Source of the DNA: a virus
IMG/VR virus record: IMGVR_UViG_3300035156_000134
Location: 1-62,355 of that record
Strand: one strand, 5' to 3'
Length of the DNA: 62,355 bases
Positions within the stretch are counted from its first letter, which is position 1. Each line of letters opens with the position of its first letter. The notes under the pieces were generated by a model, which worked only from the letters and a program-made list of their open reading frames with translations, searched no databases and was not told where the DNA came from. Position numbers and translations under genes: made by a program. Positions 4,017 to 59,389 of this stretch are shown here, one piece after another.

Positions 4017-4045
4017 GATCTACCCTACGAACTTGACAGTGTACA
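4017..4045 (-). promoter_or_regulatory. TGTACA-family promoter, minus half of divergent pair
   Basis: Reading the minus strand, TGTACA (4045-4040), 17-base spacer, TAGATC (4022-4017). It shares its palindromic -35 hexamer with the plus-strand promoter at 4040-4068. It drives the gene starting at 3971. Confidence 0.65.
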
Positions 4046-4068
4046 TTGAAGAATGGCCGAGATAGCCT
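4040..4068 (+). promoter_or_regulatory. TGTACA-family promoter, plus half of divergent pair
   Basis: TGTACA (4040-4045), 17-base spacer, TAGCCT (4063-4068), followed by CTGCTGAAGAGG before the ATG at 4095. The same hexamer is used in the opposite direction. Confidence 0.65.
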
Positions 4069-4094
4069 GATGCCACTGCTGAAGAGGAACCACC

Positions 4095-4334
4095 ATGATC
4101 TTGATCACTGCCCCATCCAATGGCAACTACATCTGGGTCGTCAAAGACCCGGCTGATGCCCGAGCCATCGCACTCAAGACCGGGTTCCCAACCATCGAGC
4201 AGGCCAAGGATGACGGCCTCGGGTTCATCCTCATGTTGAAAGAAGAGCAGGACTCATGCAACCCAACCCATACAACTACGACGATGAGCCCATCGAAGAT
4301 GAGCCAGTCGCTTTCACAGCCCTCGGCTGCGTGA
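4095..4334 (+). CDS. hypothetical phage protein
   Basis: The protein has 79 residues (MILITAPSNGNYIWVVKDPAD...). It is the first gene after the divergent promoter, with GAAGAGGAA before the ATG. The last 27 codons overlap the next gene and become Thr/Ser-rich, so the functional part is probably residues 1-53. No family recognised. Confidence 0.6.
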   Translation: MILITAPSNGNYIWVVKDPADARAIALKTGFPTIEQAKDDGLGFILMLKEEQDSCNPTHTTTTMSPSKMSQSLSQPSAA

Positions 4335-4423
4335 TCGCCTTAGCCTCGGCGTTAACGGTGCTGACCTTGGTCGGCCTCGGCGTCCGCTGGCTGGTCCAGA
4401 CTGCTTGGTCGGCTGTGTCATGA
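4256..4423 (+). CDS. small membrane protein
   Basis: The protein has 55 residues: an acidic N-terminus (MQPNPYNYDDEPIEDEP) then one membrane segment (ALGCVIALASALTVLTLVG) and a short positive tail. AAGAAGAGCAG precedes the ATG at 4256. The stop overlaps the next ATG (ATGA). Likely inner-membrane with the N-terminus outside or a small accessory to lysis or superinfection control; no family assigned. Confidence 0.6.
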   Translation: MQPNPYNYDDEPIEDEPVAFTALGCVIALASALTVLTLVGLGVRWLVQTAWSAVS

Positions 4424-4692
4424 TCCCTCGCGTGATCGCCGGGTTCACCCGAGCCTTAGCGAAGCCGAAGAACTGGGATGAGGCGAAGAACGGTCCGTGC
4501 CTCGGCCTCCCGATCCTGGACCACGTGGACGAGAACGGCGAGCCGAGCATGATCAGTGCTTGGCAGCCGACTGACGAAGAGATCATCCGCATTATGGAGG
4601 GTGCACCCGTGTATCTTCGTGTGCGTGGGACCATTCATCCGCCTGTCGGCATCTGGGCCGGCGACGCACCTGAGGACCAAGGCGGCGCGTAG
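4420..4692 (+). CDS. hypothetical phage protein
   Basis: The protein has 90 residues (MIPRVIAGFTRALAKPKNW...). The ATG at 4420 overlaps the previous stop. Contains DENGEPSMISAWQPTDEEI, typical of soluble small phage proteins. Function unknown. Confidence 0.65.
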   Translation: MIPRVIAGFTRALAKPKNWDEAKNGPCLGLPILDHVDENGEPSMISAWQPTDEEIIRIMEGAPVYLRVRGTIHPPVGIWAGDAPEDQGGA

Positions 4693-4836
4693 CGAGCCAA
4701 CGTTTTTATGTACTAAGGTCCAAGCGGTTGCTACATATTCCTCTGTCAGACCATGGTCGGGTCCTAGCGGACCGGACTCCCGCGTGCCTCGTCGCCGCCT
4801 ACTCTCCTTCAGCAGCGGCCATGGTCTGGCACTCCA

Positions 4837-4865
4837 TGTACATCGTCGAGACTTTGAGGTAGAGG
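4837..4865 (+). promoter_or_regulatory. TGTACA-family promoter
   Basis: TGTACA (4837-4842), 17-base spacer, TAGAGG (4860-4865), upstream of the gene at 4915. The 222-base gap 4693-4914 holds no convincing gene; a CTGCTGAAGGAG-like leader on the minus strand at about 4805-4816 has no start codon behind it and may be a remnant. Confidence 0.55.
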
Positions 4866-4914
4866 CCGTGGCTGGCATGCCCTGCAGGGTCTAAGCCGAC
4901 AACGGGAGAACCTC

Positions 4915-5142
4915 ATGAAGAACATCATCGAGTTGCTCAAGGGCAAGAAGACCTACATCGTCGCGATCATCGCCGTCTTGGTGTCGCTGCTGGGCTATCT
5001 GGACGGCTCCATGTCGAGTGTGGAAGCCCTCTACGCGGTCCTGGCAGCTCTCGGCTTCACCAGCGTACGCGCCGGTTCGAAGACCGATGCGATCGCAGTG
5101 ATCGAGTCGAGGCCGACCAACAACTCCAACGCCGTTCCGTAA
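4915..5142 (+). CDS. holin-like small membrane protein
   Basis: The protein has 75 residues. Two hydrophobic segments, TYIVAIIAVLVSLLGYL and ALYAVLAALGFTSV, are separated by a short polar turn; a lysine-rich N-terminus (LKGKKT) precedes them. The pattern KGKKTYIVA...LAALGFTSVRAG is typical of a widespread class of small phage proteins often annotated as holins or holin-like. GGGAG lies before the ATG. It is monocistronic between its own promoter and a perfect terminator. It is far from the endolysin at 27605, so a holin role is uncertain. Confidence 0.6.
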   Translation: MKNIIELLKGKKTYIVAIIAVLVSLLGYLDGSMSSVEALYAVLAALGFTSVRAGSKTDAIAVIESRPTNNSNAVP

Positions 5143-5164
5143 GCGAGAGCTGTCGGGTTGCAGG

Positions 5165-5205
5165 GAAACCCTGGCTGACCAAGCGGTTGGCCAGGGTTTC
5201 TTTTT
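5165..5205 (+). terminator. strong intrinsic terminator
   Basis: GAAACCCTGGC (5165-5175) pairs perfectly with GCCAGGGTTTC (5190-5200), followed by TTTTT. Confidence 0.9.
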
Positions 5206-5210
5206 GCCTG

Positions 5211-5239
5211 TTTACAAGATGCTCGGAACTACGTTACCA
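5211..5239 (+). promoter_or_regulatory. TTTACA variant of the promoter family
   Basis: TTTACA (5211-5216), 17-base spacer, TTACCA (5234-5239), then CTGCTGTAGGAGG before the ATG at 5265. Confidence 0.5.
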
Positions 5240-5264
5240 CCAAGCCCCTGCTGTAGGAGGTTTC

Positions 5265-5660
5265 ATGCTTAGACCGAACGATGTAATTGGCTGGTTCAAC
5301 CTCCGATCCCAGAAAGGGATGGGGGAAATGGCCCAGCTCACCGACGGGCTGCTAGTTGGTGGACAGATCGTGATTGGCGGGTCCGAGGCCAATATCAAGA
5401 AGGCCCACTCGTTTATGGCCGGCCGCGCCCGCATGGGCCGCATGGCTTCGATCAAGGACGCAGTGCTCGACCCGGACAAGCCGACCACGTTCGACACGCC
5501 GGCCATCGTCCAGCTGCTGCTGATCCAGGCCAACGAAACCTTCCACTCGACTGCTGACACGCTCCTCACGATGATCCAAGACATCACCGATGACGGCCAT
5601 GACGTGTCGGTTGCCCTCCAGCTCGCTCGCGAGCAGGTCAACGCCGTCCACAAGCTCTAA
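5265..5660 (+). CDS. hypothetical phage protein
   Basis: The protein has 131 residues (MLRPNDVIGWFNLRSQKGMG...). The start at 5265 follows TAGGAGG; the longer frame from 5187 runs through the promoter and is rejected. Helical C-terminal half (QANETFHSTADTLLTMIQD). First gene of the operon leading to the primase. Function unknown. Confidence 0.7.
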   Translation: MLRPNDVIGWFNLRSQKGMGEMAQLTDGLLVGGQIVIGGSEANIKKAHSFMAGRARMGRMASIKDAVLDPDKPTTFDTPAIVQLLLIQANETFHSTADTLLTMIQDITDDGHDVSVALQLAREQVNAVHKL

Positions 5661-5669
5661 GGGTCAGAC

Positions 5670-5978: not shown

Positions 5979-5982
5979 ATGT

Positions 5983-8112
5983 ATGGCAACACCGTCGAGT
6001 GCACGCAAGGTCAAGCGTGCGACCAAGAGTAGCGTCCCGAAAGGGAGCTCAGCCGAGACCAAGCTGGGCGTAGAGAAGCTGCTGACCTCAGGCCTGTCGA
6101 TGCAGGACGCTGTAGATCTAGGCATCGAGATGCTCTCGGGCTTTCAGACTGCAGCGCTGCATCCGAGCTTCGCCGCCAAGGCCAGCTTGAAGCTGAACTA
6201 CTACGACCTGTCGGGAGCCCCACTGAAGCCTAGGCCGAAGTGGCCGGACTTCTATCGGATCCGGTACCTCGAGGACGTGACCGATGAGGTCAGCTTCGAG
6301 GCAGCGACCGACAAGAAACCACTTCGCTACACCAACGAGCCCGAGGCCGGTGTTGCTGCCTACTTCCCGAAGATCGTGGATTGGTTCGAGCTAGCGGGCG
6401 ACCCGCACAAGCCCCTGATCATCACCGAGGGCGAGCTGAAGGCAGCCAAGGCCTGTAAGGAGGGCTTTGACTCCATCGGGCTCGGTGGCGTGTTCAACTT
6501 CAAGAGCGTGCGGAACGGGATCCCCTTCCTGCCCGAGCTCGAGGAGATCGACTGGGTCAAGCGGATCGTCTACATCTGCTATGACAGCGACTACCGCACG
6601 AACCCGAACGTTTGCATCGCCCTGAACCAGCTGGCTGAGGAGCTGGTGGAGCGGGGCGCTCTGGTCTACGCGCTGAGCCTGCCGGACATGCTGGACGACG
6701 GCAAGACGGGCCTGGACGACCTGCTCTGCAACGCGCCTGACGCCAACAACATGATGCGGGGCCTGCTCAGCGCTGCGGAGCCGATCGGGCTCGCTCGGCC
6801 GCTGTGGCAGCTGAACGACAAAGTCGTCTATGTCCGGGACCCTGGCCTCATCTTGGTTCGCAAGAGCCAGCAGAAGATGTCGCCCGAGGCGTTCAAGAGC
6901 CATGCGTTTGCAACCGTGAACTATACCGAGCAGCTGCTCAGGTCCGACGGCGAGATGAGCTACAAGAAGGTTGGCGCTGCGGGCCCGTGGATGAGCTGGC
7001 CGCTTCGGGCTGAGGTCACGCAGCTGCTCTACCTGCCGGGCGCTGAGAAGATGGTGCCGGACCAAGACGGGCTGGCCTTCAACATCTGGAAGGGCTGGGG
7101 CTGCGAGCCGATCAAAGGCGACATCGGCCCATGGAAGCAGCTGCTTGACCACCTGTTCGTCGGCGCTGACCCTGAGGACCGCAAGTGGTTCGAGCGGTGG
7201 TGCGCCTACCCGATCCAGAACCCAGGCGTGAAGCTCTTCAGCGCCTGCGTGTTCCACGGGACCAAGCACGGCACGGGCAAGTCCCTGGTCGGCTACATGC
7301 TTGGTCGCATCTACGGGAAGAACTTCGTCGAGATCAACAAGGACAATCTGACGGCGGGCAACTACGACTGGGCCGAGGCCAAGCAGTTCGTGCTCGGCGA
7401 TGAGGTGACCGGCTCTGCCAAGCGTGATGTGAACGACATGCTGAAGAAGCTGATCACGCAGGAGTCGTTCCGCATCAACATCAAGTACGTGCCGACCTTC
7501 GAGATCAAGGACGTCATCAACTACTTCTTCACCTCGAACCACCCGGACGCCTTCTTCATGGAGGACAACGAGCGCCGCTACTTCATCCACGAGATCAAGA
7601 CAGGTCCGCTCGACGATGCCTTCTACGAGATGTTCGATGAGTGGATGAAGCGGGGGCCAGGGCCGAGTGCCTTGTTCCACTACATGCTGAACCTCGATCT
7701 GGGCGACTTCAACCCACACGCGCCGGCTCGGAAGACGGTGGCTCGTCAGCGCATGATCGCCGACACCAAGTCAGACCTCGGCGAGTGGGTGCATCGGCTC
7801 CTGGCGGACCCGGACAGCATGCTGAAGCTCGGCCATGTCCACGCCGACCGGGATCTGTTCACGAACCGTGAACTGCTAGTCATGTATGATCCTGAGCAGC
7901 GGACGGGCACGACTGCCAACGGCCTCGGCCGAGAGCTCCGTCGGTCCGGCGTCACGCTCGCGTACGATGGCGGCGTGTTGCCGGGCAAAGACGGCTCGGA
8001 CCGCTACTACATCATCCGCAACCTCGACAAGTGGGTCGGCGCGAACCGCCAACAGTTGGTCAAGCACCTCGACGCAACGAAAAAAGTTCGCAGCACAAGC
8101 AAAAAGTTCTAA
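5983..8112 (+). CDS. primase-helicase (DUF3854 + DUF5906)
   Basis: The protein has 709 residues and probably primes and unwinds DNA at the fork. Residues about 130-250 contain a Toprim-like DUF3854 region (PLIITEGELKAAKA; later YICYDSD and GLDDLL). Residues about 410-530 form a DUF5906/D5-type helicase with Walker A GTKHGTGKS, Walker B QFVLGDE and a sensor-like FFTSNH. A winged C-terminal extension follows. ATG 5983 is used; the site upstream is weak, so coupling to the previous gene (4-base gap) is likely. It is encoded upstream of DNA polymerase A, replacing a T7 gp4-type enzyme. Confidence 0.85.
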   Translation: MATPSSARKVKRATKSSVPKGSSAETKLGVEKLLTSGLSMQDAVDLGIEMLSGFQTAALHPSFAAKASLKLNYYDLSGAPLKPRPKWPDFYRIRYLEDVTDEVSFEAATDKKPLRYTNEPEAGVAAYFPKIVDWFELAGDPHKPLIITEGELKAAKACKEGFDSIGLGGVFNFKSVRNGIPFLPELEEIDWVKRIVYICYDSDYRTNPNVCIALNQLAEELVERGALVYALSLPDMLDDGKTGLDDLLCNAPDANNMMRGLLSAAEPIGLARPLWQLNDKVVYVRDPGLILVRKSQQKMSPEAFKSHAFATVNYTEQLLRSDGEMSYKKVGAAGPWMSWPLRAEVTQLLYLPGAEKMVPDQDGLAFNIWKGWGCEPIKGDIGPWKQLLDHLFVGADPEDRKWFERWCAYPIQNPGVKLFSACVFHGTKHGTGKSLVGYMLGRIYGKNFVEINKDNLTAGNYDWAEAKQFVLGDEVTGSAKRDVNDMLKKLITQESFRINIKYVPTFEIKDVINYFFTSNHPDAFFMEDNERRYFIHEIKTGPLDDAFYEMFDEWMKRGPGPSALFHYMLNLDLGDFNPHAPARKTVARQRMIADTKSDLGEWVHRLLADPDSMLKLGHVHADRDLFTNRELLVMYDPEQRTGTTANGLGRELRRSGVTLAYDGGVLPGKDGSDRYYIIRNLDKWVGANRQQLVKHLDATKKVRSTSKKF

Positions 8113-8120
8113 ATTGGCTG

Positions 8121-8148
8121 TGTACATGCGGGCTCACGGTGATACGCA
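8121..8148 (+). promoter_or_regulatory. TGTACA-family promoter
   Basis: TGTACA (8121-8126), 16-base spacer, TACGCA (8143-8148), then CTGCTGAAGGAG. It drives the genes from 8218. Confidence 0.55.
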
Positions 8149-10411: not shown

Positions 10412-10440
10412 TTTACAACATGGGGGAGCTGGGTTAGACC
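10412..10440 (+). promoter_or_regulatory. TTTACA variant of the promoter family
   Basis: TTTACA (10412-10417), 17-base spacer, TAGACC (10435-10440). Upstream AAATAAGTGAAATTAG matches the A-rich element; CTGCTGAAGGAA follows. It drives genes from 10473 through the replication block. Confidence 0.65.
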
Positions 10441-15638: not shown

Positions 15639-16238
15639 GTGGCGAAGACAAGATTGCTGGTGGCCATGCGGAACAGCATCCGCAAGAAGCTGATCGACCG
15701 GGCGTTCGATCACCGGGAGAAGGAGCTGAAGGATCGGCGCCCGATCATCGCCAAGATGGCGTACGAAGAGATCGTCACGCCCGAAGAGCAAAAGCGCATG
15801 GCGGCTTTGCCGCCAGAGTGGTTCCCATCTGGGAAACGCGTCGAGATCGAGGACCACGCGGATGATGACTACCGCGGCTATCAACGGGAGTGGATCCACT
15901 GGGACATGACTTGGGCTGAGCCGTATCCGTATGATCGGATTTTGAAGATCGGTGCTAAGAAGATGTCGGATGATCTGCTCCAGGCCGTCGAGGAACAGGT
16001 GGCAGCCGAGATCGAACTGGGCGAAACCAAGGCGGCCGCGGTGGCCTCCACCCAAGCGCTCCTGGACAGCTACAACTGGGTCGAAGATCTGGTCACAGGC
16101 TGGCCTGAGGCTGCGTCTGTGATCCATGAGGTGGTGACCACCGGTGGTGTCATGAGGGACCTGCCAGCTGTGACCAGCCTCAACTCACTGCTCGGCCTGC
16201 CGCCGGGTCAGGTCCGTCACGAACATCATAACGCATAA
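15639..16238 (+). CDS. Nmad5-like (nucleotide-modification-associated) protein
   Basis: The protein has 199 residues with a GTG start after GCTGAAGGAG. The arrangement of a helical start (RNSIRKKLIDRAFDHREKEL), MAALPPEWFPSG, a variable middle and TQALLDSYNWVEDLVTGWPEA fits my recollection of the Nmad5 family, found near DNA-base modification genes in phages. Its enzymatic role is unknown. The presence of a modification cluster at 20-26 kb in the same genome supports the call. Alternative: unrelated helical phage protein. Confidence 0.5.
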   Translation: MAKTRLLVAMRNSIRKKLIDRAFDHREKELKDRRPIIAKMAYEEIVTPEEQKRMAALPPEWFPSGKRVEIEDHADDDYRGYQREWIHWDMTWAEPYPYDRILKIGAKKMSDDLLQAVEEQVAAEIELGETKAAAVASTQALLDSYNWVEDLVTGWPEAASVIHEVVTTGGVMRDLPAVTSLNSLLGLPPGQVRHEHHNA

Positions 16239-18583: not shown

Positions 18584-18612
18584 TGTACAGCGTTGTGAGC
18601 TTTGGGTAGACA
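18584..18612 (+). promoter_or_regulatory. TGTACA-family promoter
   Basis: TGTACA (18584-18589), 17-base spacer, TAGACA (18607-18612), upstream CAAAATAGTTG, downstream AGCTGAAGGAG. It starts a new unit at 18638. Confidence 0.7.
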
Positions 18613-20363: not shown

Positions 20364-20392
20364 TGTACAAAGGCTGGGCTGTGCGATAGCCT
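20364..20392 (+). promoter_or_regulatory. TGTACA-family promoter
   Basis: TGTACA (20364-20369), 17-base spacer, TAGCCT (20387-20392), then CTGCTGAAGGAGG before ATG 20416. It drives the modification genes. Confidence 0.7.
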
Positions 20393-20415: not shown

Positions 20416-21435
20416 ATGAAGACGTTTCTATTGAGCCCATTCTACCCGGTGGCAGACAAGCTGGACACCAGCCACCGAGCTGGCTGGGCGCGGTACTGGA
20501 CACGCGCCCTTGGCGAGGTGGAGGTCAAGCCGACCCTGCTGACGACGGCCACCATGCCCGCGCTGGATCAGGCCAAGAAGGGCGACATCATCTACTGTTA
20601 CCACGGCATGGAGTGGGGTGGCGCCATGAACCTGCAGTCCGGCCTGACGAACGAGATCATCGCCCGGGCCGATCGGCTGGTCGACGCTAAGAAGCGGGGC
20701 GTCAAGCTCGTCAGCCTCGATATCCCCATGCCGTCGTATGGCAAGCTGCTCGAGGCCCGAGGCTATGCCCGGTCCGAGCACCTGACGGCCGCACTCGCCA
20801 AGCAGGGGTACCTGAGGGTGCCAAACGAGCGAGCGGCACACGTGATCATGGGAGACAGCCACGCTCTCAGCCAATATGTGCCTGGCGCTGTGATCTACCG
20901 GACCGACGGCCAGACCCTCCACGGCGCCATGCTGGTCGGCCTCGAGAAGCGCCTGGAGAATTGGGCCTTCGAGACGGCGGTGGAGCTAGAGAGTTTGTCA
21001 AAGCTGACCTCGTACTTCGGCAACATCGACATCCGCCACCACATCTGTCGGCTGCCCGACCCGGGCAAAGCTATCAAGGACCTGATCGACGAATACGGCA
21101 AACAGCTGAACTCGATCCGTAACTCTAACAACATCTCTGAAATTGAGGTGGTCCTGCCGCTCCACATCGAGAGCGAGGACCGCGTGCTGCCCAAGACGGG
21201 CTGGTATAAGGGGACACCGTTCTTCGGCACGTGGAGCGAGCGGCATCAGGTCAAGATCGCGATGATGACCCGGATCAAGGCCATGGCCAAGAAGCACGGG
21301 TTCGCGGTGGTCGACCATCCGAAGCACTTCCTCATGCGGAATGGGCAGCTCGACTTCGCCGTGATGGAGACTCCTCGGTCCGTCCACATCCGGCCGTCCG
21401 AGTATCGCCTCATCCAGGAGGGCATGACATGGTGA
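20416..21435 (+). CDS. SGNH/GDSL-like protein of the modification cluster
   Basis: The protein has 339 residues and is soluble. Block-I-like motif IMGDSHALSQ (GDSH) near residue 138 and a later YFGNIDIRHH (G-N-x-D...H, about residue 200) follow the SGNH hydrolase order (Ser in GDS, Gly, Asn, His). The first 120 residues (CYHGMEWGGAMNLQSG, LVSLDIPMPSYG) resemble a Rossmann-like region. In cluster context it might transfer or hydrolyse an acyl or glycosyl group on a modified base; not demonstrated. It overlaps the next gene by 7 bases. Confidence 0.5.
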   Translation: MKTFLLSPFYPVADKLDTSHRAGWARYWTRALGEVEVKPTLLTTATMPALDQAKKGDIIYCYHGMEWGGAMNLQSGLTNEIIARADRLVDAKKRGVKLVSLDIPMPSYGKLLEARGYARSEHLTAALAKQGYLRVPNERAAHVIMGDSHALSQYVPGAVIYRTDGQTLHGAMLVGLEKRLENWAFETAVELESLSKLTSYFGNIDIRHHICRLPDPGKAIKDLIDEYGKQLNSIRNSNNISEIEVVLPLHIESEDRVLPKTGWYKGTPFFGTWSERHQVKIAMMTRIKAMAKKHGFAVVDHPKHFLMRNGQLDFAVMETPRSVHIRPSEYRLIQEGMTW

Positions 21436-22553
21436 CCGTGTCGCTGAAGTCCATCCGTGACATGATGTGCACCGCTGCTCGGAACGAAGGGATCTTACGG
21501 GACGAGAAGGGCTACCGCGCCAAGATCGTGGACGTGCGTCCCTTCGTGGAAGCGCACAACCGAGGATTGGTGTTCACACCGTACTTCGTCGAGGCTCTGC
21601 ACTATGTGGCCAAGGCGAAGAAGCTGCAGACAGCGTCGCTGGCTGGAAAGAAGGTGCCGAAGGTCGGGGACCCGCTGATGGAGGCCATCCCGATCTACAA
21701 CACGGTCGAGCGCCGCTATGCCGGGTTCAGCAATGTGCTCGAGCACCTCTGGTACGGGGTTGGAGCTCCGAAGTTTTTTCAGAATAGCGCGGCGGGCCGG
21801 CTGCAACCGCTGGTGCATTGGCAGCACCTCGGCAGTGGTAAGAAGCTGGAGGAGTGGCTTTACATTACGTTGGTTCACCGACTGACAGGTAGTGGTGCTA
21901 GCTTCGAGAGTGATCACGGGTGGCGGAACAACCGGGTGGCTGAGATGGCACACCTCGGGGCGCTGGCCAGCATGGCCAAGTTCATCCGCTATTATCCTGA
22001 GCCGATCTTCACGTCGATCGGGAACCAGATCCCGCCGTTCCCACCGATGGGTGGGCGCGCATATCTGCAGGACGTGGCACCGGAGTTCGTGATGCGTGTG
22101 GCTGACGTGCTTCGTGGCGTGGCGATCATCAACAAAGCGCCGATGGGGATCAAGCTGGCTGTCGACACCGTGCTTGGCATCCACAAGACGATGGGCTACA
22201 AGCAGTTCAAGTTCGTCTTCACGGCCTGGGTCATGGACATGGCCGAGTATCTGCCGCACCTGGTGGACCCCAACAGCGATTGTTACCACGGCAAGAACGC
22301 CATCGAGAGCATGAACATCTGCTTTGACCGGCTGCCGACCATGAAGCTTCAGGACTTCTACGACACGGCTACGCGCCTCTTCGCCGACCTCACTGGCACG
22401 AAGCCGATGGACGTGGAGGACGCCAGCCCGGGCTGTGACCTGGTCCGATGGATCGAGAACTACGTCCCCAAGAAGGGCTTCGACCATGTGCTTGAGCAGG
22501 GAGTCTACAACGGCAGCAGTCTCCGGTGGCACGCGGGCAGACAGCCTCAATAG
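21429..22553 (+). CDS. candidate amino-acid:DNA transferase (aGPT-Pplase-like)
   Basis: The protein has 374 residues; GGAGGG precedes ATG 21429. The segment LTGSGASFESDHGWRNN, preceded by GFSNVLEHLWYGVGAPKFF, resembles the conserved core of alpha-glutamyl/putrescinyl thymine pyrophosphorylases, glycosylase-fold enzymes that replace a pyrophosphate on 5-hydroxymethylpyrimidine in DNA with an amine or amino acid. The clade is uncertain. Together with the kinase (23515) and hydroxymethylase-like gene (24478) this would supply the condensation step. I could not verify the family by alignment. Confidence 0.5.
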   Translation: MVTVSLKSIRDMMCTAARNEGILRDEKGYRAKIVDVRPFVEAHNRGLVFTPYFVEALHYVAKAKKLQTASLAGKKVPKVGDPLMEAIPIYNTVERRYAGFSNVLEHLWYGVGAPKFFQNSAAGRLQPLVHWQHLGSGKKLEEWLYITLVHRLTGSGASFESDHGWRNNRVAEMAHLGALASMAKFIRYYPEPIFTSIGNQIPPFPPMGGRAYLQDVAPEFVMRVADVLRGVAIINKAPMGIKLAVDTVLGIHKTMGYKQFKFVFTAWVMDMAEYLPHLVDPNSDCYHGKNAIESMNICFDRLPTMKLQDFYDTATRLFADLTGTKPMDVEDASPGCDLVRWIENYVPKKGFDHVLEQGVYNGSSLRWHAGRQPQ

Positions 22554-22557
22554 ACCA

Positions 22558-22586
22558 TGTACAGCCGCGTGTGGGCATCGTAAGCC
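22558..22586 (+). promoter_or_regulatory. TGTACA-family promoter
   Basis: TGTACA (22558-22563), 17-base spacer, TAAGCC (22581-22586), then CGCTGAAGGAG. It drives genes from 22608 to 26454. Confidence 0.7.
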
Positions 22587-22607
22587 AGACCCGCTGAAGG
22601 AGACACC

Positions 22608-23513
22608 ATGTCACACGACACCCATACCAACGACCGCTCGTTCCTCGAGCTCAACCACGGCGCCACCGTCGAGACCTACCGCCAGATGGCGAAGGGTTGG
22701 AAGGACCCGTTTCCGCTCCCCACCATAGCCAAGGTCGGCCTCGATGCCGAGCGAAGCGTGCTCGTAGTCCGAGACGACTTGTCCGAGCTCGGCAGCAAGG
22801 CTCGCTTTGGCAGCCTGCTGGTTCAACGCATGAAGGAGGACACCATTGTCTATGTCGCACCTCGAGTCGGTTGGGCACCGATCAGCCTCGCCAAGCTCTG
22901 CAAGATGTATGGCAAACGGCTCATCCTATTTGCCCCAGCTTCAAAGGATGCGTCAGATCATCAGCGGGTGGCCGTTGAGCTCGGCGGCGAGATGCGCTTC
23001 GCTCGCATCGCAGCCATGCCAGTGCTTCAGCTGCAGGCGAAGGCATTTGCTGAGAAGCACGGCTATCTCTTCGCCCCACTTGGTCTTCGTCATCCCCTGG
23101 TCACAGCGGCGATTGTGGCCACTGCAGACAAGCTCGCGAAGAGGATGGGGTCACCGCCTGCCGAAGTCTGGTCCGCCATGTCAACTGGAGTTTTGGGACG
23201 AGGACTCCAACTGGCCTGGCCTGACGCAGAGTACCACGGCGTTGCGGTTGCTCGGAATATCAAAGCGGGTGAACGTGGTCGAGCTATAATTCACAGCCAC
23301 CCGATGGCGTTCCTGCAGGACGAGAAGAAAGAGTTTCGGCCGCCCTTCCCGTCTGCGTCGAACTACGACGCCAAGGTCTGGAGGTTCATGCAGGACCACG
23401 CACAGGACGGCGCCCTGTTCTGGAACGTAGCCGGCGAAATTCAGCCGACCAAGCCCAACAAGCTCAAGTCCGACGTCGCATGGGGCGATGCTTCGGCCTT
23501 CAAGAGGAAGTAA
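22608..23513 (+). CDS. PLP-dependent enzyme, fold type II
   Basis: The protein has 301 residues. VVRDDLSELGSKARFG carries a lysine in the position where ACC-deaminase/D-cysteine-desulfhydrase-like enzymes bind PLP (RDDL...GSK). Alpha/beta repeats follow (VYVAPRVGWAPISLAKLCKMYG; RLILFAPAS; FAPLGLRHPLVTAAIVATAD; AMSTGVLGRGL), consistent with the tryptophan-synthase-beta fold. It would act on an amino acid or an amino-acid-bearing base. CTGAAGGAG leads the ATG. Confidence 0.65.
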   Translation: MSHDTHTNDRSFLELNHGATVETYRQMAKGWKDPFPLPTIAKVGLDAERSVLVVRDDLSELGSKARFGSLLVQRMKEDTIVYVAPRVGWAPISLAKLCKMYGKRLILFAPASKDASDHQRVAVELGGEMRFARIAAMPVLQLQAKAFAEKHGYLFAPLGLRHPLVTAAIVATADKLAKRMGSPPAEVWSAMSTGVLGRGLQLAWPDAEYHGVAVARNIKAGERGRAIIHSHPMAFLQDEKKEFRPPFPSASNYDAKVWRFMQDHAQDGALFWNVAGEIQPTKPNKLKSDVAWGDASAFKRK

Positions 23514-23514
23514 C

Positions 23515-24465
23515 ATGGCCGACAGAGTCAAACGCATCATCATTCTTGAGGGGCCAGATTGCGCGGGCAAGACCACGCTGGCCCGAGAGCTTAGTGACAG
23601 GTACGGTAGCGAGATGGCCGTCATCCACCAAGGACCGTTCCCTCGAGTGACTGCAGCGCAGCTGCCTCGGTTCTACGTCGAGAGCATGATGCCCGCCATC
23701 AACAACTACACTGGCCTGATCATGGATCGCAGCTGGTTGTCGGAGCCAATCTACGGCAGCGCCTTCCGGGGTGGGACTAACCGCATCAGCGATGTGGCCA
23801 GGCGCCACCTCGAGCGGATCGCCATGCGGCACGGCGCCGTGGTCGTGCTGTGTCTCCCGCCGTGGGAGGCAGTGGCGACCGAGTGGAAGAAGCGGAAGGG
23901 CTTCGACCCGAAGGCCGAGATGCTGGAAGGCCTCGACCAGCTCGAACATGTCTACCAAGGCTACGAGCGGCTGCATCTCGACACGGACCTCCCGGTGGTG
24001 CGCTACAACTACAAGATGCACGGCAGCCAGAACGGGATCATCCGCAGCCAGCTCGAACGGATCGGGGCCCCGCTGCATGAGCTGAGGTCTCGGATGGTCG
24101 GCGACTTGGATGCCCAGGTGATCTTGGTCGGCGAGAAGGCCAGTGACCACACTGACGCTGACGCACTCCGCCAATTCCCGTTCTGTTCATTCAGCAAGCA
24201 GGGCTCCAGCGCATGGTTGACCGAGCAGCTGTGGAAGGCCGACATCTCCGAGCAGGCGCTGCTGTGGCTGAACGCTTCGGACGGTGTCCACCAGATCAAG
24301 GACCTCTACGCCAGACCCACGATTGCGCTCGGCCAAGCTGCGTCCGATGCTTTGACGGCTCTGGGTATCCCGCATGAGATGGTGGCACATCCGCAGTATC
24401 ACAAACGTTTCACCCCAGGGATCGAGTATCCGCTGATCCCGCTGATCAAGTCCCATCTCAAGTAA
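23515..24465 (+). CDS. P-loop nucleotide kinase fused to UDG-like domain
   Basis: The protein has 316 residues. Residues 1-195: thymidylate-kinase-like P-loop enzyme with GPDCAGKTT (13-21), IMDRSWLSEPIYG and a lid-like stretch. This resembles kinases that phosphorylate 5-hydroxymethyl-pyrimidines or their nucleotides. Residues about 200-316: VILVGEKASDH, SSAWLTEQLW, ALLWLNASD, PTIALGQAASDAL and VAHPQYHKRF follow the motif order of the uracil-DNA glycosylase superfamily (G-E-x, Asn, LG-x-A, HP), without iron-sulfur cysteines. The fusion suggests recognition of a modified base coupled to phosphorylation; this is inference. Confidence 0.7.
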   Translation: MADRVKRIIILEGPDCAGKTTLARELSDRYGSEMAVIHQGPFPRVTAAQLPRFYVESMMPAINNYTGLIMDRSWLSEPIYGSAFRGGTNRISDVARRHLERIAMRHGAVVVLCLPPWEAVATEWKKRKGFDPKAEMLEGLDQLEHVYQGYERLHLDTDLPVVRYNYKMHGSQNGIIRSQLERIGAPLHELRSRMVGDLDAQVILVGEKASDHTDADALRQFPFCSFSKQGSSAWLTEQLWKADISEQALLWLNASDGVHQIKDLYARPTIALGQAASDALTALGIPHEMVAHPQYHKRFTPGIEYPLIPLIKSHLK

Positions 24466-24477
24466 AGGAACCAGACT

Positions 24478-25299
24478 ATGCAGACCCTCAATAACGCCTG
24501 GTGGGAACAGCTAGCGTTCGTCATGGCTGGAGGCCGTCAGACCAGCCCGCGGGGCCAGCTGACACTGGAGGTGCCGTCCAGAACTCTGAGCTTCGACATG
24601 AACTACCCCGTCGTGGTCCAGCCACTTCGGAAGCTCGGCTACAAGTTCATGGCGGCCGAGGCATGGTGGATCCTGTCAGGCCGGGACGACGTCGACGCCA
24701 TCGCGCCGTACAGCAAGGACATCAGCAAGTTCAGTGACGACGGCCACAAGTTCTACGGCGCCTACGGGCCGAGGATCGTGGCGCAGCTCGACTACGTCGT
24801 CAATGCTCTGCTGTCGGACCCAGACACTCGACAGTCGGTGCTGACCACTTGGCGGCAGAACCCCACCCGCTCGAAGGATGTGCCGTGCACTGTCGCCTTC
24901 AGCTGGATGATCCGGGACGGCGCCTTGGAGTGCCACGTGTTCATGCGGTCGAGTGACAACTGGCTGGGCATTCCGTACGACGCGTTCAACTTCAGCATGC
25001 TGTCGGCCGAGATTGCCCGTCAACTGAACCAGCACCCGCTCCTCCACGGCGTGCCGATCAAGCTCGGTGACTGTCACCTGACGGCCGCGTCGAGCCACAT
25101 CTACCAGCGCAACTTCGATGATGTGCTGGCCGTGCTGAACACAGCTCCGGTCCGGAACAACGGTGTGCCTGTGCCAGTGTCGCTCTACAACCCGGAGGAG
25201 ATGATGCCTTCATACGGGCGGTGGACCAGCGTAGCGGCGTTCCTCGATATCCTCAAGGACACGAAGGCCGGTCACGAGCTTCGCTGGTGGGAACAGTGA
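24478..25299 (+). CDS. thymidylate-synthase-family pyrimidine (hydroxy)methylase
   Basis: The protein has 273 residues. The catalytic loop DVPCTVAFSW places Cys137; RSSDNWLGIPYDAFNF and GDCHLTAASSHIYQRN complete the family signature. Thymidylate synthases have Asn 31 residues after the Cys (E. coli Asn177); here it is Asp168, as in T4 dCMP hydroxymethylase (Cys148/Asp179). So the substrate may be dCMP rather than dUMP, and the product 5-hydroxymethyl- or 5-methyl-dCMP. ThyX at 25810 makes a second canonical thymidylate synthase unnecessary. Coupled to the deaminase by GTGA. Confidence 0.8.
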   Translation: MQTLNNAWWEQLAFVMAGGRQTSPRGQLTLEVPSRTLSFDMNYPVVVQPLRKLGYKFMAAEAWWILSGRDDVDAIAPYSKDISKFSDDGHKFYGAYGPRIVAQLDYVVNALLSDPDTRQSVLTTWRQNPTRSKDVPCTVAFSWMIRDGALECHVFMRSSDNWLGIPYDAFNFSMLSAEIARQLNQHPLLHGVPIKLGDCHLTAASSHIYQRNFDDVLAVLNTAPVRNNGVPVPVSLYNPEEMMPSYGRWTSVAAFLDILKDTKAGHELRWWEQ

Positions 25300-47220: not shown

Positions 47221-47250
47221 CCTATACCCTGGAATTGAAGCCTTTGTACA
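47221..47250 (-). promoter_or_regulatory. TGTACA-family promoter for the capsid operon
   Basis: TGTACA (47250-47245), 18-base spacer, TATAGG (47226-47221). The scaffold ATG at 47122 is about 95 bases downstream. It lacks the CTGAAGGAG leader of the early-type members. Confidence 0.55.
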
Positions 47251-49758: not shown

Positions 49759-51178
49759 GACTTGTCTCCATCCCTTCCGCGAACATACCCTTGCGGGAGG
49801 CGCTCTGTACATCTTTGACGGCCAGCTCGGTCACGGCCCAGACCAGCGCATCCATCCGGTCAGCCAGCATCTTACCAGCCTGGGCCGGCGAGTAGCTCAC
49901 CATCTGATCTTCGAGCTCCTTCATCATGCCCACGTGGTGGACCATGTTCCGCTCGTACAACGCCGAAACAGGCTCGGCCCGGGTCAACTTGCCGCGACTG
50001 GCATAGACGGCCTTGTAGTTGTAGAGGCCGTAGTTGTTCAGGCCCGCCGTGGTGCGGAGGGTGTTCTCGACCATGGCGCCGCCGTTGTTCGCCTCGGCGA
50101 TCAGCTTGTCCGCCTTGTGCAGGTGGAACTGCGACATGGCTTTCCGGGCCCACTCGATCGGTGTCCCTTGGATCGACGCGTCCTCGAGAACGTAGACGTG
50201 GCCGTTGGCAGCCAAACCAGCCGTGACGATGCCGGACTCGGCTTCATCCTTCTCCGAGATGGAGGGATCGACGGCGGTGACCACCCGGATCAGCGGCGGC
50301 ACGTCTGGCAGCTGGACTCGGTTACGGTCGATGTCCTTGGCCGACCACAAGGCGCCCATGATGTCAAGCAGCAGCTCGCCCGCGATCTCCTGGCGACCGA
50401 GGCGGGTGCCCTCGTAGTTCGAGACGACGGCATCGAAGAAGGTCGGGGCGAGGTTGGCTCGGTTGTCGTAGGTGGACCCGGACGTGATAAACGTCGTCCG
50501 GGCCTTAGCGATCTTCACCAGAGCAGGTACAGGTTTCGGGGTCGTTGTAATGCAGATCTGAGGCCCAATAGTCCGGGTGCGAACGAGACGCATCCCGAAC
50601 AGCAACATGTCCCAGACCGCCTGTGCATCTGGCCAGGCTGCGAGCTCGTCAACCCACGCAACATGGTGCTGCGGACCACGAAGGCGGTCAGCTTCTTCGG
50701 CGGAGAAGAGTGTGGCAATGCTTCCATCCTTCCAGGTCAACCGCCGCTTCGAGCTCTCGTACTTCGGCATGTTGTTCGGTGGACAGATCGCGAGGATGCC
50801 TGAGTCACCTTCGACCATGATATCGCGGGCGTCACCGGCGGTCGGGCCGACGAGTGCACACCGGATGGGCTTCTTCCGACGCTGCGCATCCTCCACCTCT
50901 TGGCGGATATACTCGGCGCCAGCCCGGGTCTTGCCGAAGCCGCGGCCGGCCAGGATCAACCAGGCGAACCACATCAGCTCCTTGCGGTCTTCGTCCTTCG
51001 GATCCTGGCTGTTGGCCCAGGGGAACATGTCCGGCTTCAGCTGGGCAGGGCGCGCGTTGATCGGCCACATGAACTTCAGCTTGGCCTTGAGCTCAGGCGG
51101 AAGCTTCGAGAGCATCTGCGCCACGAGGTGCGCCTTCTCTGGCCCTGCTGCCTTCAACACCTCCTGCAACGTACGCAT
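49748..51178 (-). CDS. terminase large subunit
   Basis: The protein has 476 residues. Walker A LAGRGFGKT, Walker B HHVAWVDE, motif III-like CITTTPKP in the ATPase half, and a C-terminal RNase-H-like nuclease with VTAVDPS, LIAEANNGG and MDALVWAV acidic motifs. It drives DNA packaging. It is separated from the probable small subunit (59703) by about 8.5 kb. Its last 11 bases overlap the portal start. Confidence 0.9.
   Translation of the reverse strand: MRTLQEVLKAAGPEKAHLVAQMLSKLPPELKAKLKFMWPINARPAQLKPDMFPWANSQDPKDEDRKELMWFAWLILAGRGFGKTRAGAEYIRQEVEDAQRRKKPIRCALVGPTAGDARDIMVEGDSGILAICPPNNMPKYESSKRRLTWKDGSIATLFSAEEADRLRGPQHHVAWVDELAAWPDAQAVWDMLLFGMRLVRTRTIGPQICITTTPKPVPALVKIAKARTTFITSGSTYDNRANLAPTFFDAVVSNYEGTRLGRQEIAGELLLDIMGALWSAKDIDRNRVQLPDVPPLIRVVTAVDPSISEKDEAESGIVTAGLAANGHVYVLEDASIQGTPIEWARKAMSQFHLHKADKLIAEANNGGAMVENTLRTTAGLNNYGLYNYKAVYASRGKLTRAEPVSALYERNMVHHVGMMKELEDQMVSYSPAQAGKMLADRMDALVWAVTELAVKDVQSASRKGMFAEGMETSHGR
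49782..49811 (-). promoter_or_regulatory. TGTACA-family promoter inside terminase gene end
   Basis: TGTACA (49811-49806), 18-base spacer, TATGTT (49787-49782), placed 24-53 bases before the portal ATG. Because it lies in coding sequence, the match is less certain. Confidence 0.45.
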
Positions 51179-54711: not shown

Positions 54712-55119
54712 TTACGCGTTCGCAGCGGTGATCTGGAACGCCGAGATGGTCACGGCCTGGGCGAGCGCGACGTTGGTGTTGTCCACCGTCATGTCGCCGC
54801 CACCGCCGGTGGCCGTCACAGTCCCCTGCAGGTGGCAGGTCGTGCCGTCGCTCGCGTAGATGCGGAAGTGGCCGATCACGCCGGCGGCGTCCGCCGAGAG
54901 GTCCTCCCAGGTGCCGCTCTTGGCCTTCGTGCCGCCCGAGGCGGCCAGGAGCCAGTCGGCGGGCAGATTGAGCGTGGCGACCGTGGTGCCCGAGTTCGCT
55001 GCCGCGCAGCTGGCAGGAGGCGCACCGGTGAAGAGCTTCATGATGGCCGAGACGCCGATGGCTGTCTCGATGGCGTCCAGCCGAGCGTTTCGGACTGCGA
55101 CGGACTGCTGAAGTGCCAT
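54712..55119 (-). CDS. beta-rich virion protein
   Basis: The protein has 135 residues. An N-terminal helix (AVRNARLDAIETAIG) is followed by strands (LKLFTGAPPASC-like, GHFRIYASDGTTCHLQG, TVDNTNVALAQAVTISAF). This layout is common for small phage structural proteins encoded next to fibre genes. GGGAG precedes ATG 55119; a promoter lies 30-60 bases upstream. Confidence 0.65.
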   Translation of the reverse strand: MALQQSVAVRNARLDAIETAIGVSAIMKLFTGAPPASCAAANSGTTVATLNLPADWLLAASGGTKAKSGTWEDLSADAAGVIGHFRIYASDGTTCHLQGTVTATGGGGDMTVDNTNVALAQAVTISAFQITAANA

Positions 55120-55148: not shown

Positions 55149-55178
55149 GTCATACCATCAGCAGGCGAGATTTGTACA
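55149..55178 (-). promoter_or_regulatory. TGTACA-family promoter for fibre operon
   Basis: TGTACA (55178-55173), 18-base spacer, TATGAC (55154-55149), 30 bases before ATG 55119. Confidence 0.55.
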
Positions 55179-55407: not shown

Positions 55408-55418
55408 AACTTCCTCCT

Positions 55419-57550: not shown

Positions 57551-57585
57551 TGGCTGATCTCCTTCAGCTACGGGGTGGAGGCGTC

Positions 57586-57614
57586 TGAATATAGCCTGGG
57601 CCGTTTGATGTACA
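57586..57614 (-). promoter_or_regulatory. TGTACA-family promoter
   Basis: TGTACA (57614-57609), 17-base spacer, TATTCA (57591-57586), then GTAGCTGAAGGAG before ATG 57550. Confidence 0.65.
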
Positions 57615-57836
57615 TCAAGCGGGGTTCTCGGCCCGGACCATGTCGGCCATCCGCTCAATCTCCCACCACTCCTGGCTGGTGAACAGATCCGTACGTCTGG
57701 ACACGTCGTGGGTGAACAGAGCACCCTCAGCCTCCCAGACCACCATCATATACCTCTGGATGAGCGGCAGGCGCATGACGTCATGGTCGACCTTGATCGG
57801 CCCGAGCGTGGATGTGTCGATGGGCTCCTTGCTCAC
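57615..57836 (-). CDS. hypothetical phage protein
   Basis: The protein has 73 residues. GTG 57836 (SKEPIDTSTLG) overlaps the stop of the 27-residue ORF upstream and is preferred to a longer frame. Contains YMMVVWEAEGALFTHDVSRR and SQEWWEIERMADMV. Its stop abuts the TGTACA box of the next promoter. Function unknown. Confidence 0.6.
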   Translation of the reverse strand: MSKEPIDTSTLGPIKVDHDVMRLPLIQRYMMVVWEAEGALFTHDVSRRTDLFTSQEWWEIERMADMVRAENPA

Positions 57837-57916
57837 TTCCCTGATCCCATCATCGCGCCTGCCACCAGCTCGATGGCAGACCAGACCTTCTCGCTGCACC
57901 AGCGCCAGAGCCTCAC
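57833..57916 (-). CDS. 27-residue micro-ORF linked by GTGA overlaps
   Basis: GTG 57916 overlaps the upstream stop and its own stop overlaps the next GTG. The product begins VRLWRWCSEKVWSAIELVAG: a Trp-rich amphipathic helix. Either a real micro-protein or a translational relay between two genes. Confidence 0.4.
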   Translation of the reverse strand: MRLWRWCSEKVWSAIELVAGAMMGSGK

Positions 57917-58182
57917 GACTTGGCCTCCTTCAACTTCGCCACCACCAGATCAAAGTGCTCGACCACATGGATGACTCCGCCGTCCTCGACACCGGAGTTC
58001 ATCGTGATCCAGGTGCCGTCCTCGACCCAGCGCTTGTCGCTCAAAGCCGCGAGCTTGTCGTCTTCGTGGCAAACCAGCCTCGGGCTGAACGACTCGATCC
58101 GGTCGACGTTGACCACCACCGGCGTCGCAGCGGAGCGTCCATAGATCCTGGACGGCTCGGTAAACATCACCATTCGTAACAT
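57913..58182 (-). CDS. small beta-rich protein
   Basis: The protein has 89 residues. PVVVNVDRIESF and GTWITMNSGVEDGGVIHVVE followed by a C-terminal helix loosely resemble FlbD-like small proteins, without enough identity to call it. CTGAAGGAGG leads the ATG at 58182, behind the promoter at 58208-58236. Confidence 0.6.
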   Translation of the reverse strand: MLRMVMFTEPSRIYGRSAATPVVVNVDRIESFSPRLVCHEDDKLAALSDKRWVEDGTWITMNSGVEDGGVIHVVEHFDLVVAKLKEAKS

Positions 58183-58207
58183 GTGGGTCCTCCTTCAGCT
58201 TGATCCC

Positions 58208-58236
58208 GGCTTAAGCCGCTTGGGATAGTCTGTACA
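58208..58236 (-). promoter_or_regulatory. TGTACA-family promoter
   Basis: TGTACA (58236-58231), 17-base spacer, TAAGCC (58213-58208), upstream GATGAAATTGTC, downstream AGCTGAAGGAGG. Confidence 0.7.
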
Positions 58237-58270
58237 TAGACAATTTCATCATACCAGATAGCCGCCTGAG

Positions 58271-58492
58271 TTAGCTGTAGCGCTCGAAGTCTTCGGCCGC
58301 AACTACGAGGCCATCGAAGTCCTCTTCGGACCCGAGCACATCCGCCAACTCGATCAGTTGATCCATGGGCACATTGTAATCGTCGGACAGGGACTCGAGG
58401 TACGCAAAGCGGCTCTCGTATCCATGGTCGGCATAGACCGAAGTGCCAGGTGCCTCTGCATTCACACGGTCCTTGGTGGCCTGGCTGATCAT
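58271..58492 (-). CDS. small acidic protein
   Basis: The protein has 73 residues (MISQATKDRVNAEAPGTSVY...), strongly acidic C-terminal half (LGSEEDFDGLVVAAEDFE). ATGA overlap with the upstream gene. Acidic small early proteins sometimes mimic DNA or bind host enzymes; no direct evidence here. Confidence 0.6.
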   Translation of the reverse strand: MISQATKDRVNAEAPGTSVYADHGYESRFAYLESLSDDYNVPMDQLIELADVLGSEEDFDGLVVAAEDFERYS

Positions 58493-58722
58493 GCCGGGTC
58501 GCCCGCACCGTTCGGCGCAACATACATGGCGATGACTTCCCAGACGATGTCATCTGAGTTCTTCGACGTCCTGCCACTATATAGCGCGGACATCAACGTC
58601 TTCGTGTCAGCCTTGACGGTGTTGGTCGTAGCGTACGCAGCTGTCTCGGCGTGCCAGCCACCGAAGGTGCTCTCGTAGTGGATGCCGTCCTTTCGGATGA
58701 CGATCAATTTGAAATGTGGCAT
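58489..58722 (-). CDS. hypothetical phage protein
   Basis: The protein has 77 residues (MPHFKLIVIRKDGIHYESTF...). The start follows GCTGAAGGAG. Beta-alpha-beta composition. First of a two-gene unit driven by the promoter at 58751-58779. Confidence 0.6.
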   Translation of the reverse strand: MPHFKLIVIRKDGIHYESTFGGWHAETAAYATTNTVKADTKTLMSALYSGRTSKNSDDIVWEVIAMYVAPNGAGDPA

Positions 58723-58750
58723 CTTGGTCTCCTTCAGCATTGTGGCTCTG

Positions 58751-58779
58751 TTCATACTGTGGCGAGATGGCCCTGTACA
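58751..58779 (-). promoter_or_regulatory. TGTACA-family promoter
   Basis: TGTACA (58779-58774), 17-base spacer, TATGAA (58756-58751), upstream AATGAAAATATGTG, leader TGCTGAAGGAG. It overlaps the end of the upstream gene. Confidence 0.7.
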
Positions 58780-59039
58780 CACATATTTTCATTACCTCGA
58801 AGCTCTCGCATCTTCAATCCAAGCTCGCGTCTCGTCAGAACAATGGCGCCGAGTTCCAAAGCGACTTTGCGTCTAGTTAGCGACACGTCATAGTGCGGAA
58901 AGCTTGTCGGTTGAAACCAGGTGCGGCGCATGCCGATCTGATCAGCCACGGCGTGTAGCTCGTCAAGTGTGTCAGCAATCATGTGACACATCTTCATGCG
59001 ACCAAGTGGGTTCCGGGCTTCGTCGACATAGACACTCAT
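58752..59039 (-). CDS. DUF4031 family protein
   Basis: The protein has 95 residues. MSVYVDEARNPLGRMKMCHM, then IADTLDELHAVADQIG, then SFPHYDVSLTRRKVALELGA matches DUF4031, a small family widespread in bacteria and phages; biochemical function unknown. The last about 17 residues extend over the next promoter. ATGA overlap fixes the start at 59039. Confidence 0.85.
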   Translation of the reverse strand: MSVYVDEARNPLGRMKMCHMIADTLDELHAVADQIGMRRTWFQPTSFPHYDVSLTRRKVALELGAIVLTRRELGLKMRELRGNENMCVQGHLATV

Positions 59040-59206
59040 GCTCGAGCTTCTTTGATGGTCGCGAGCAATGCTTCCATGTCTGTGTCTTCCTCGACGGCTC
59101 CGTGCTCGATCATTTCGTCTGCGAAGTCCTGATCAGACTGTGGCATATCGAAACCGTTGGCGACGCAGTTGGCGATATTTTCTTTGATGATCTCGAGCAA
59201 TGTCAT
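59036..59206 (-). CDS. small acidic helical protein
   Basis: The protein has 56 residues (MTLLEIIKENIANCVANGFD...), acidic. It follows the CTGCTGAGGAG leader and overlaps the DUF4031 start. Function unknown. Confidence 0.6.
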   Translation of the reverse strand: MTLLEIIKENIANCVANGFDMPQSDQDFADEMIEHGAVEEDTDMEALLATIKEARA

Positions 59207-59231
59207 GGTGGGCTCCTCAGCAGATGCACGA

Positions 59232-59260
59232 TGCCTATTTCACTTTGAGACTTATGTACA
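59232..59260 (-). promoter_or_regulatory. TGTACA-family promoter
   Basis: TGTACA (59260-59255), 17-base spacer, TAGGCA (59237-59232), upstream AATGAAAATAAGTG, leader CTGCTGAGGAG. Confidence 0.7.
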
Positions 59261-59283
59261 CACTTATTTTCATTATCCAAATT

Positions 59284-59354
59284 CCCCGGAAATGTACCGG
59301 GGTGGCTGGCCGCGGTTCGGCCACGGTACAAGGGGGGACCGCGCGATGAGCCCT
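59284..59354 (-). ncRNA. candidate structured small RNA between tandem promoters
   Basis: A promoter at 59361-59389 reads toward this gene-free stretch. Nested pairings are visible: GTACCG (59329-59324 minus) with CGGTAC (59299-59294), TGGCCG with CGGCCA inside it, and CCCCGG with CCGGGG at 59302-59284. No coding frame of reasonable size exists. It may be a small RNA or a structured leader that ends before the next promoter. Confidence 0.35.
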
Positions 59355-59360
59355 AGTCCC

Positions 59361-59389
59361 ATCGTACCACGACCTCACATCAATGTACA
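59361..59389 (-). promoter_or_regulatory. TGTACA-family promoter without downstream gene
   Basis: TGTACA (59389-59384), 17-base spacer, TACGAT (59366-59361), upstream AATGAAAATAGTTG. It is the outermost of the minus-strand set. Confidence 0.6.

What the first reader, a model, noticed from the sequence alone, without database searches (positions are those of the whole stretch)
4017..59389. Genome-wide promoter family TGTACA-N17-TAGNNN with conserved leader
About twenty gene-start regions on both strands share a palindromic TGTACA (or TTTACA), a spacer of 16-18 (mostly exactly 17) and a -10 such as TAGGTA, TAGACC, TAGCCT, TAAGCC or TATGAA. Early-type copies also share an upstream AATGAAAATAAGTG element and a downstream CTGCTGAAGGAG leader; the three in the late/structural region have 18-base spacers and no leader. 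The uniform palindromic -35 is unlike a generic host consensus and hints at a phage-encoded activator or an adapted sigma factor.
Basis: seen in the sequence. Interest (0 to 1): 0.8.

Follow-up and report, generated by a model that had tools for sequence, protein, structure and literature searches.

The report
T4-style phage promoters using TGTACA
This uncultured phage starts about twenty of its genes from a shared promoter that looks like the strong early promoters of phage T4, except that the usual recognition box is replaced by the palindrome TGTACA, a version that also recurs in many other uncultured phages.

Summary
TGTACA-N17-TAG occurs 9 times against 0.05 expected, always outside genes, and 18 of 27 TGTACA sites lie in the 8.8% non-coding DNA. 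About 20 gene starts carry it (17-base spacer in most, 18 in three late copies).

The same family fills three related contigs (59.6, 62.7 and 38.8 kb) and recurs, with a perfect TATAAT, in AT-rich uncultured phages.

What it is: a promoter with the layout of T4 early promoters. It has an A-rich block at -45 to -40, G at -36, a -35 box, 17 bases and a TAnnnT-type -10. A weight matrix from T4-like early promoters fits the upstream block only at the exact register. The main tolerated variants are TTTACA (the T4 box) and TGTACT. Stenotrophomonas phage IME13 mixes TTTACA and TGTACA, and one orthologous late promoter is TGTACA in two relatives and TTTACA in a third. Canonical TTGACA is almost absent.

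The palindrome does not extend into its flanks, and no sigma factor, activator or RNA polymerase was recognised in the window. Best reading: host sigma70-type polymerase reads a phage-specific -35 box; a phage activator is unsupported but not excluded. CTGCTGAAGGAG is a promoter-linked ribosome-binding site. Novelty: new variant of a known kind.

The parts
4040..4068 (+). promoter TGTACA-N17-TAGCCT, rightward; its TGTACA (4040-4045) is also the -35 of the divergent leftward promoter
4017..4045 (-). promoter TGTACA-N17-TAGATC, leftward, sharing the same TGTACA palindrome
   Evidence: same arrangement in relative G001 at 6702, with an orthologous flanking gene
3272..3300 (-). promoter TGTACA-N17-TAGGTA with CTGCTGAGGAG leader and ATG
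576..603 (-). promoter TGTACA-N16-TATGTA (end-repeat copy of 62072)
911..939 (-). TGTACA with leader but no recognisable TA -10 box; doubtful
4837..4865 (+). promoter TGTACA-N17-TAGAGG, no GCTGAAGG leader
5211..5240 (+). weak T4-type variant TTTACA-N18-TACCAC
8121..8148 (+). promoter TGTACA-N16-TACGCA; AAAGTTCT-TGTACA arrangement kept upstream of orthologues in G003 and G014
10412..10440 (+). promoter TTTACA-N17-TAGACC (T4-type -35); TTTACA also kept upstream of the orthologue in G001
18584..18612 (+). promoter CAAAATAGTTG-TGTACA-N17-TAGACA with leader
20364..20392 (+). promoter TGTACA-N17-TAGCCT with CTGCTGAAGGAG leader
22558..22586 (+). promoter TGTACA-N17-TAAGCC; conserved in G001 upstream of an 83% identical gene
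57586..57614 (-). promoter TGTACA-N17-TATTCA with leader
58208..58236 (-). promoter TGTACA-N17-TAAGCC with leader
58751..58779 (-). promoter AATGAAAATATGTG-TGTACA-N17-TATGAA with leader
59232..59260 (-). promoter AATGAAAATAAGTG-TGTACA-N17-TAGGCA with leader; the fullest match
59361..59389 (-). AATGAAAATAGTTG-TGTACA-N17-TACGAT, upstream of the 59260 promoter, no gene start directly after it
59531..59559 (-). TGTACA-N17-TAGCAC, no gene start directly after it
62044..62072 (-). promoter TGTACA-N17-TAGGTA with leader (end-repeat copy of 603)
47221..47250 (-). late-type promoter TGTACA-N18-TATAGG; orthologous site is TGTACA-N18 in G001 and TTTACA-N18 in G002
49782..49811 (-). late-type promoter TGTACA-N18-TATGTT inside the 3' end of the terminase gene, before the portal gene; kept in G002, G003, G005 with invariant wobble bases
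55149..55178 (-). late-type promoter TGTACA-N18-TATGAC before gene 54712-55119

Best explanation
These are the phage's own strong promoters, built like the T4 early promoters (A-rich proximal UP element at about -45 to -40, TG at -37/-36, a -35 box, 17 bases, a -10 box). They are read by the host's sigma70-type RNA polymerase, with the alpha C-terminal domain on the A-rich block and sigma region 4 on the -35 box. The -35 box is the phage-type TGTACA, a sister of T4's TTTACA that differs at -34, in place of the host TTGACA. Transcripts would start about 6-8 bases after the -10 and carry a short leader whose main element is a strong ribosome-binding site (GCTGAAGGAG). The structural genes use a reduced version: no A-rich block, 18-base spacer, TAT-type -10. 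At one divergent junction a single TGTACA palindrome serves as -35 for promoters in both directions. Shown here: the sequence pattern, its conservation, its register match to T4-type promoters and its interchange with TTTACA. Inferred: that it is transcribed, that host polymerase suffices, and the timing classes.
For: Enrichment and position before gene starts. In non-coding windows with a -10 box at N17, TGTACA is found 30 times in the window and three relatives (1.1 expected) and 76 times in eleven AT-rich phages (4.6 expected); the enriched single-base variants are mainly TTTACA (4 and 8, against 0.15 and 0.87 expected) and TGTACT (3 and 3); TTGACA is 0 and 2. In the T4-like phage SHFML-26 the same test gives TTTACA/TTTACT and no TGTACA or TTGACA; IME13 gives TTTACA 8 and TGTACA 5; G034 gives TGTACA 6 and TTTACT 3. 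A matrix of the -53 to -36 region of T4-like early promoters scores +1.3 on the window group and +5.5 on the AT-rich group at the exact register, and between -13.5 and -0.5 at every shift of 1-6 bases. A T4-like promoter before the spackle gene reads AAAATAACTG-TTTAC, against GAAAATAACTG-TGTACA here. At an orthologous late promoter the -35 is TGTACA in the window and G001 and TTTACA in G002, all N18. The -10 becomes TATAAT in AT-rich phages. Published: T4 early promoters have UP/-35/TGn/-10 layout and use host polymerase (PMC2988021); T4-like phages have an A-rich -40 to -44, G at -36 and GTTTAC (PMC1524935).
Against: TGTACA matches only 4 of 6 bases of TTGACA and changes two bases that sigma70 is generally held to contact (my knowledge), yet it is held more strictly than the -10 in the GC-rich phages; that is also what a dedicated binding protein would cause. 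Most cultured T4-like phages tested (T4, RB49, Aeh1, KVP40, Cr30, phiM12, HTVC008M, S-PM2) show no excess of TGTACA promoters over the control. No transcription start is mapped, and the host is unknown.
Confidence: 0.77

Rival explanations
1. A phage-encoded activator or sigma-appropriating factor (by analogy with T4 MotA/AsiA) recognises TGTACA with or without the A-rich block and recruits host polymerase to a weak -10.
For: The -35 box is held more strictly than the -10 in the GC-rich phages and TTGACA is nearly absent. Many small proteins of the window have no known family.
Against: No sigma, HTH, MotA or AsiA family appeared in the scans. No protein cluster is shared by all motif-rich phages, though several contigs are incomplete. 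T4 early promoters share the layout and need no phage protein (PMC2988021). TTTACA replaces TGTACA in the same slot.
Confidence: 0.14
2. TGTACA is an operator: a symmetric dimeric repressor or regulator binds over the -35 of otherwise ordinary promoters.
For: The core is a perfect palindrome and occurs many times, like phage operator or stoperator arrays.
Against: Conservation is one-sided and symmetry stops at the hexamer: flanking complementarity 10-35%, near the 25% expected by chance. The position is fixed relative to the -10. No repressor or integrase family was found.
Confidence: 0.05
3. The site is read only by phage-altered polymerase (for example ADP-ribosylated alpha subunit, as by T4 Alt) or only on modified phage DNA; the window carries a probable thymine-modification gene cluster.
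For: The cluster at about 20416-25299 is shared with G001-G003, G015, G022 and G024, all of which have the motif.
Against: Motif-rich G019, G020, G023, G032 and G037 share none of the three cluster proteins 20416, 21429 and 22608, so the modification is not needed for TGTACA. No Alt-like family was seen.
Confidence: 0.03

Closest known systems
T4 early promoters (Tequatrovirus; reference here Shigella phage SHFML-26)
   Same: A-rich block at about -44 to -40, G at -36, TAC core of the -35, strict 17-base spacer, TAnnnT -10, one promoter before each of many small early genes (PMC2988021, PMC1524935).
   Different: The -35 is TGTACA (G at -34) instead of TTTAC; the -10 is poorer in this GC-rich siphophage; a GCTGAAGG leader is attached; a no-UP N18 version serves late genes.
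Stenotrophomonas phage IME13 (Straboviridae, Tulanevirus) early-type promoters
   Same: Uses TGTACA and TTTACA side by side in the same A-rich/-35/N17/-10 frame.
   Different: A T4-type phage, not a relative of the window phage; TTTACA is at least as common as TGTACA.
Certrevirus CB7 sigma70-like promoter AAAA(N4)TGTTGAC(N17)TATAAT (PMC7344957)
   Same: A-rich block, TG before the -35, 17-base spacer, many copies in the early region.
   Different: Keeps the canonical TTGAC -35.
Mycobacteriophage cluster K SAS/ESAS elements (PMC3203893)
   Same: A repeated start-associated sequence before many genes with an upstream extended element.
   Different: ESAS is a 17-bp imperfect inverted repeat with a 4-13 bp spacer in most sites and no described -35/-10 geometry; the sequences differ.

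Membership tests
T4-type early promoter | A-rich UP-like block at about -45 to -40 in fixed register | tested here: met
   Register-specific match to the SHFML-26 matrix for the window group as a whole; degenerate in about half of the window's own copies.
T4-type early promoter | GTTTAC at -36 to -31 | tested here: not met
   GTGTAC instead in most copies; TTTACA in a minority, at 10412 and weakly 5211. So it is filed as a sister variant, not a member.
T4-type early promoter | 17-base spacer and TAnnnT -10 | tested here: inconclusive
   Spacer met. The final T of the -10 is frequent in G002/G003 (81%) but not in the window.
T4-type early promoter | Transcribed by host sigma70 polymerase without phage protein synthesis | not testable with these tools
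   Needs transcription assays or RNA sequencing.
Host-consensus sigma70 promoter | TTGACA -35 | tested here: not met
   0 TTGACA with a -10 at N17 in the window group and 2 in the AT-rich group.
Activator-dependent (MotA-like) middle promoter | Phage activator gene and a MotA box centred at -30 | tested here: not met
   No such gene family in the scans; the box sits at -35 to -30 with sigma70 spacing and has no GCTT core.
Phage operator array | Two-fold symmetric site bound by a phage repressor | tested here: not met
   No symmetry beyond 6 bp; no repressor family.

The most novel reading that the evidence does not exclude
TGTACA is a separate, phage-specific promoter element used by many unrelated uncultured phages and read through a phage-supplied or host factor not yet known. 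Its palindromic form lets one -35 box drive transcription in both directions.
Probability: 0.15. Interest if true: 0.75.

Novelty: new variant of a known kind. Interest (0 to 1): 0.45.

Why it matters
It shows that the T4 early-promoter design is used beyond the T4-like phages, with a -35 box that nearly excludes the host consensus. The motif marks gene starts across many uncultured phages and could improve their annotation. The natural TGTACA/TTTACA interchange, and one palindromic -35 shared by divergent promoters, make sigma region 4 recognition at -34/-33 and bidirectional initiation directly testable.

Tried and rejected
Phage sigma factor, activator or polymerase: no family hit. Common regulator shared by all motif phages: none at BLASTP sensitivity. 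Symmetric operator: no flank symmetry. Cultured carriers: portal, capsid and primase relatives have none or one match; most cultured T4-like phages tested show no excess over the control; blastn with consensus promoters found no cultured phage with the full element. DNA modification as the reason for TGTACA: motif-rich phages without the cluster exist. A seeming TGTACA/TTTACA orthologue pair at G002 31029 and G003 35086 was dropped, as the downstream proteins differ. Leader as a feature of the whole promoter class: group-specific, not linked to promoters in T4-like, IME13 and AT-rich phages. Literature search for GTGTACA or TGTGTACA with phage promoters: nothing relevant.
Full report
**Check of the observation.** The window is a 62,355-base IMG/VR virus record. 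TGTACA-N17-TAG occurs 9 times on the two strands against 0.05 expected from dinucleotide-preserving shuffles, and none of the nine overlaps a predicted gene. Of 27 TGTACA palindromes, 18 lie in the 8.8% of non-coding bases (p = 2e-13), and TGTACA is the most enriched non-coding hexamer. With variants, about 20 gene starts carry the element. The window's ends, 1-884 and 61472-62355, are 822/878 identical, so 603(-) and 62072(-) are copies of one locus. Gene calls come from a codon-model script written here, not from a standard gene finder.

**Relatives.** Major-capsid relatives were found in IMG/VR. Three long contigs, G001 (59.6 kb), G002 (62.7 kb) and G003 (38.8 kb), have TGTACA at or near the top of non-coding hexamers and a peak of TAG boxes at spacer 17; two more distant relatives, G008 and G010, do not. 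In G002 and G003 the element reads (C/T)GAAAATAGTTG-TGTACA-N16/17-TAGNNT. Orthologous promoters are kept: 22558 (gene 83% identical in G001), 8121 (orthologues in G003 and G014), 10412 with TTTACA (gene 64% identical in G001), and the late 47250(-) site (70% and 54% identical genes in G001 and G002). The site at the end of the terminase gene, 49811(-), keeps TGTACA-N18-TATGTT in the window, G002, G003 and G005 while neighbouring wobble bases vary, which points to selection on the DNA.

**Beyond the genus.** Whole contigs then show up to 14 copies of TGTACA-N17-TAnnnT, mostly on one strand, with reversed-pattern controls near zero. Sites chosen only by TGTACA and a TA box still show the A-rich block and, in AT-rich phages, a TATAAT -10. 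The DNA polymerase of one such contig is 63% identical to that of Kyanoviridae phage C48C1, so a T4-like replication module is likely there. The related motif with TAnnnT had 7 scattered hits in 257 Gb of bacterial and archaeal genomes, so the element belongs to phages.

**Link to T4 early promoters.** A consensus promoter from these contigs aligned to the T4-like promoter before the spackle gene, which reads AAAATAACTG-TTTAC. Three tests followed. (a) In non-coding windows with a -10 at N17, TGTACA is over-represented about 27-fold in the window group and 17-fold in the AT-rich group; TTTACA and TGTACT are the clearly enriched single-base variants; TTGACA is 0 and 2. The T4-like phage SHFML-26 uses TTTACA/TTTACT with no TGTACA or TTGACA; IME13 uses TTTACA 8 and TGTACA 5; G034 uses TGTACA 6 and TTTACT 3. 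(b) A matrix of the -53 to -36 region from SHFML-26 peaks sharply at the exact register on all groups. (c) One orthologous late promoter has TGTACA in the window and G001 and TTTACA in G002. Published descriptions of T4-like early promoters give the same A-rich -40 to -44, G at -36 and GTTTAC (PMC1524935) and an UP/-35/TGn/-10 layout read by host polymerase (PMC2988021). Certrevirus CB7 has AAAA(N4)TGTTGAC(N17)TATAAT (PMC7344957). TGTACA is thus a further version of a phage-type UP/-35/-10 promoter. The SHFML-26 promoters used for the matrix were picked by sequence, not by mapped starts.

**Mechanism.** Shown: pattern, conservation, register and interchange with TTTACA. Inferred: host sigma70-type polymerase reads it, alpha C-terminal domain on the A-rich block, sigma region 4 on the -35, initiation 6-8 bases after the -10, then a short leader. 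The leader GCTGAAGGAG is linked to promoters within this genus (14/17 against 2/70 in the window; 24/33 against 5/124 in G002 and G003) and not elsewhere, so it is a ribosome-binding module of the genus. At 4040-4045 one TGTACA serves promoters in both directions, each with N17 and a TAG box; G001 has the same arrangement with an orthologous flanking gene.

**Activator or sigma factor.** Scans of nearly all predicted proteins with Pfam and PHROGs found no sigma, HTH, MotA, AsiA or RNA polymerase family. Limits: the group scans with PHROGs list only the top 25 families, the two very long tail proteins were not scanned, and many small proteins remain unassigned. No protein is shared by all motif-rich phages. 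Conservation is one-sided around TGTACA and symmetry ends at the hexamer. These lower, but do not exclude, a phage factor.

**Open point.** Why G at -34 and T at -33 are kept so strictly is not explained. IME13, which mixes both boxes, is the only cultured phage found here with more than a few such sites.

Noticed in passing
4017-4068; also G001 6702-6707: One TGTACA palindrome is the -35 of two divergent promoters, both with N17 and a TAG box; the arrangement is kept in a relative with an orthologous flanking gene (38% identity).
   Followed up: partly
1-884 and 61472-62355: The contig ends are an imperfect direct repeat (822 of 878 aligned bases identical): probably a circular or permuted genome of about 61.5 kb closed across strain variants, or a duplicated gene.
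   Followed up: partly
20416-25299: Probable thymine-modification cluster (thymidylate synthase-like protein, AAA kinase-like protein, PLP-dependent enzyme, phrog_13881 protein), with an Nmad5-domain protein nearby at 15639-16238; three of its proteins are shared with G001-G003 and with the motif-bearing contigs G015, G022 and G024.
   Followed up: no
59232-59559: Largely gene-free stretch with three copies of the element in a row on the minus strand; two have no gene start directly after them.
   Followed up: no
IME13 (NC_029000), whole record: A cultured T4-type phage whose predicted early promoters mix TTTACA and TGTACA, a natural case for testing -34 base preference.
   Followed up: partly
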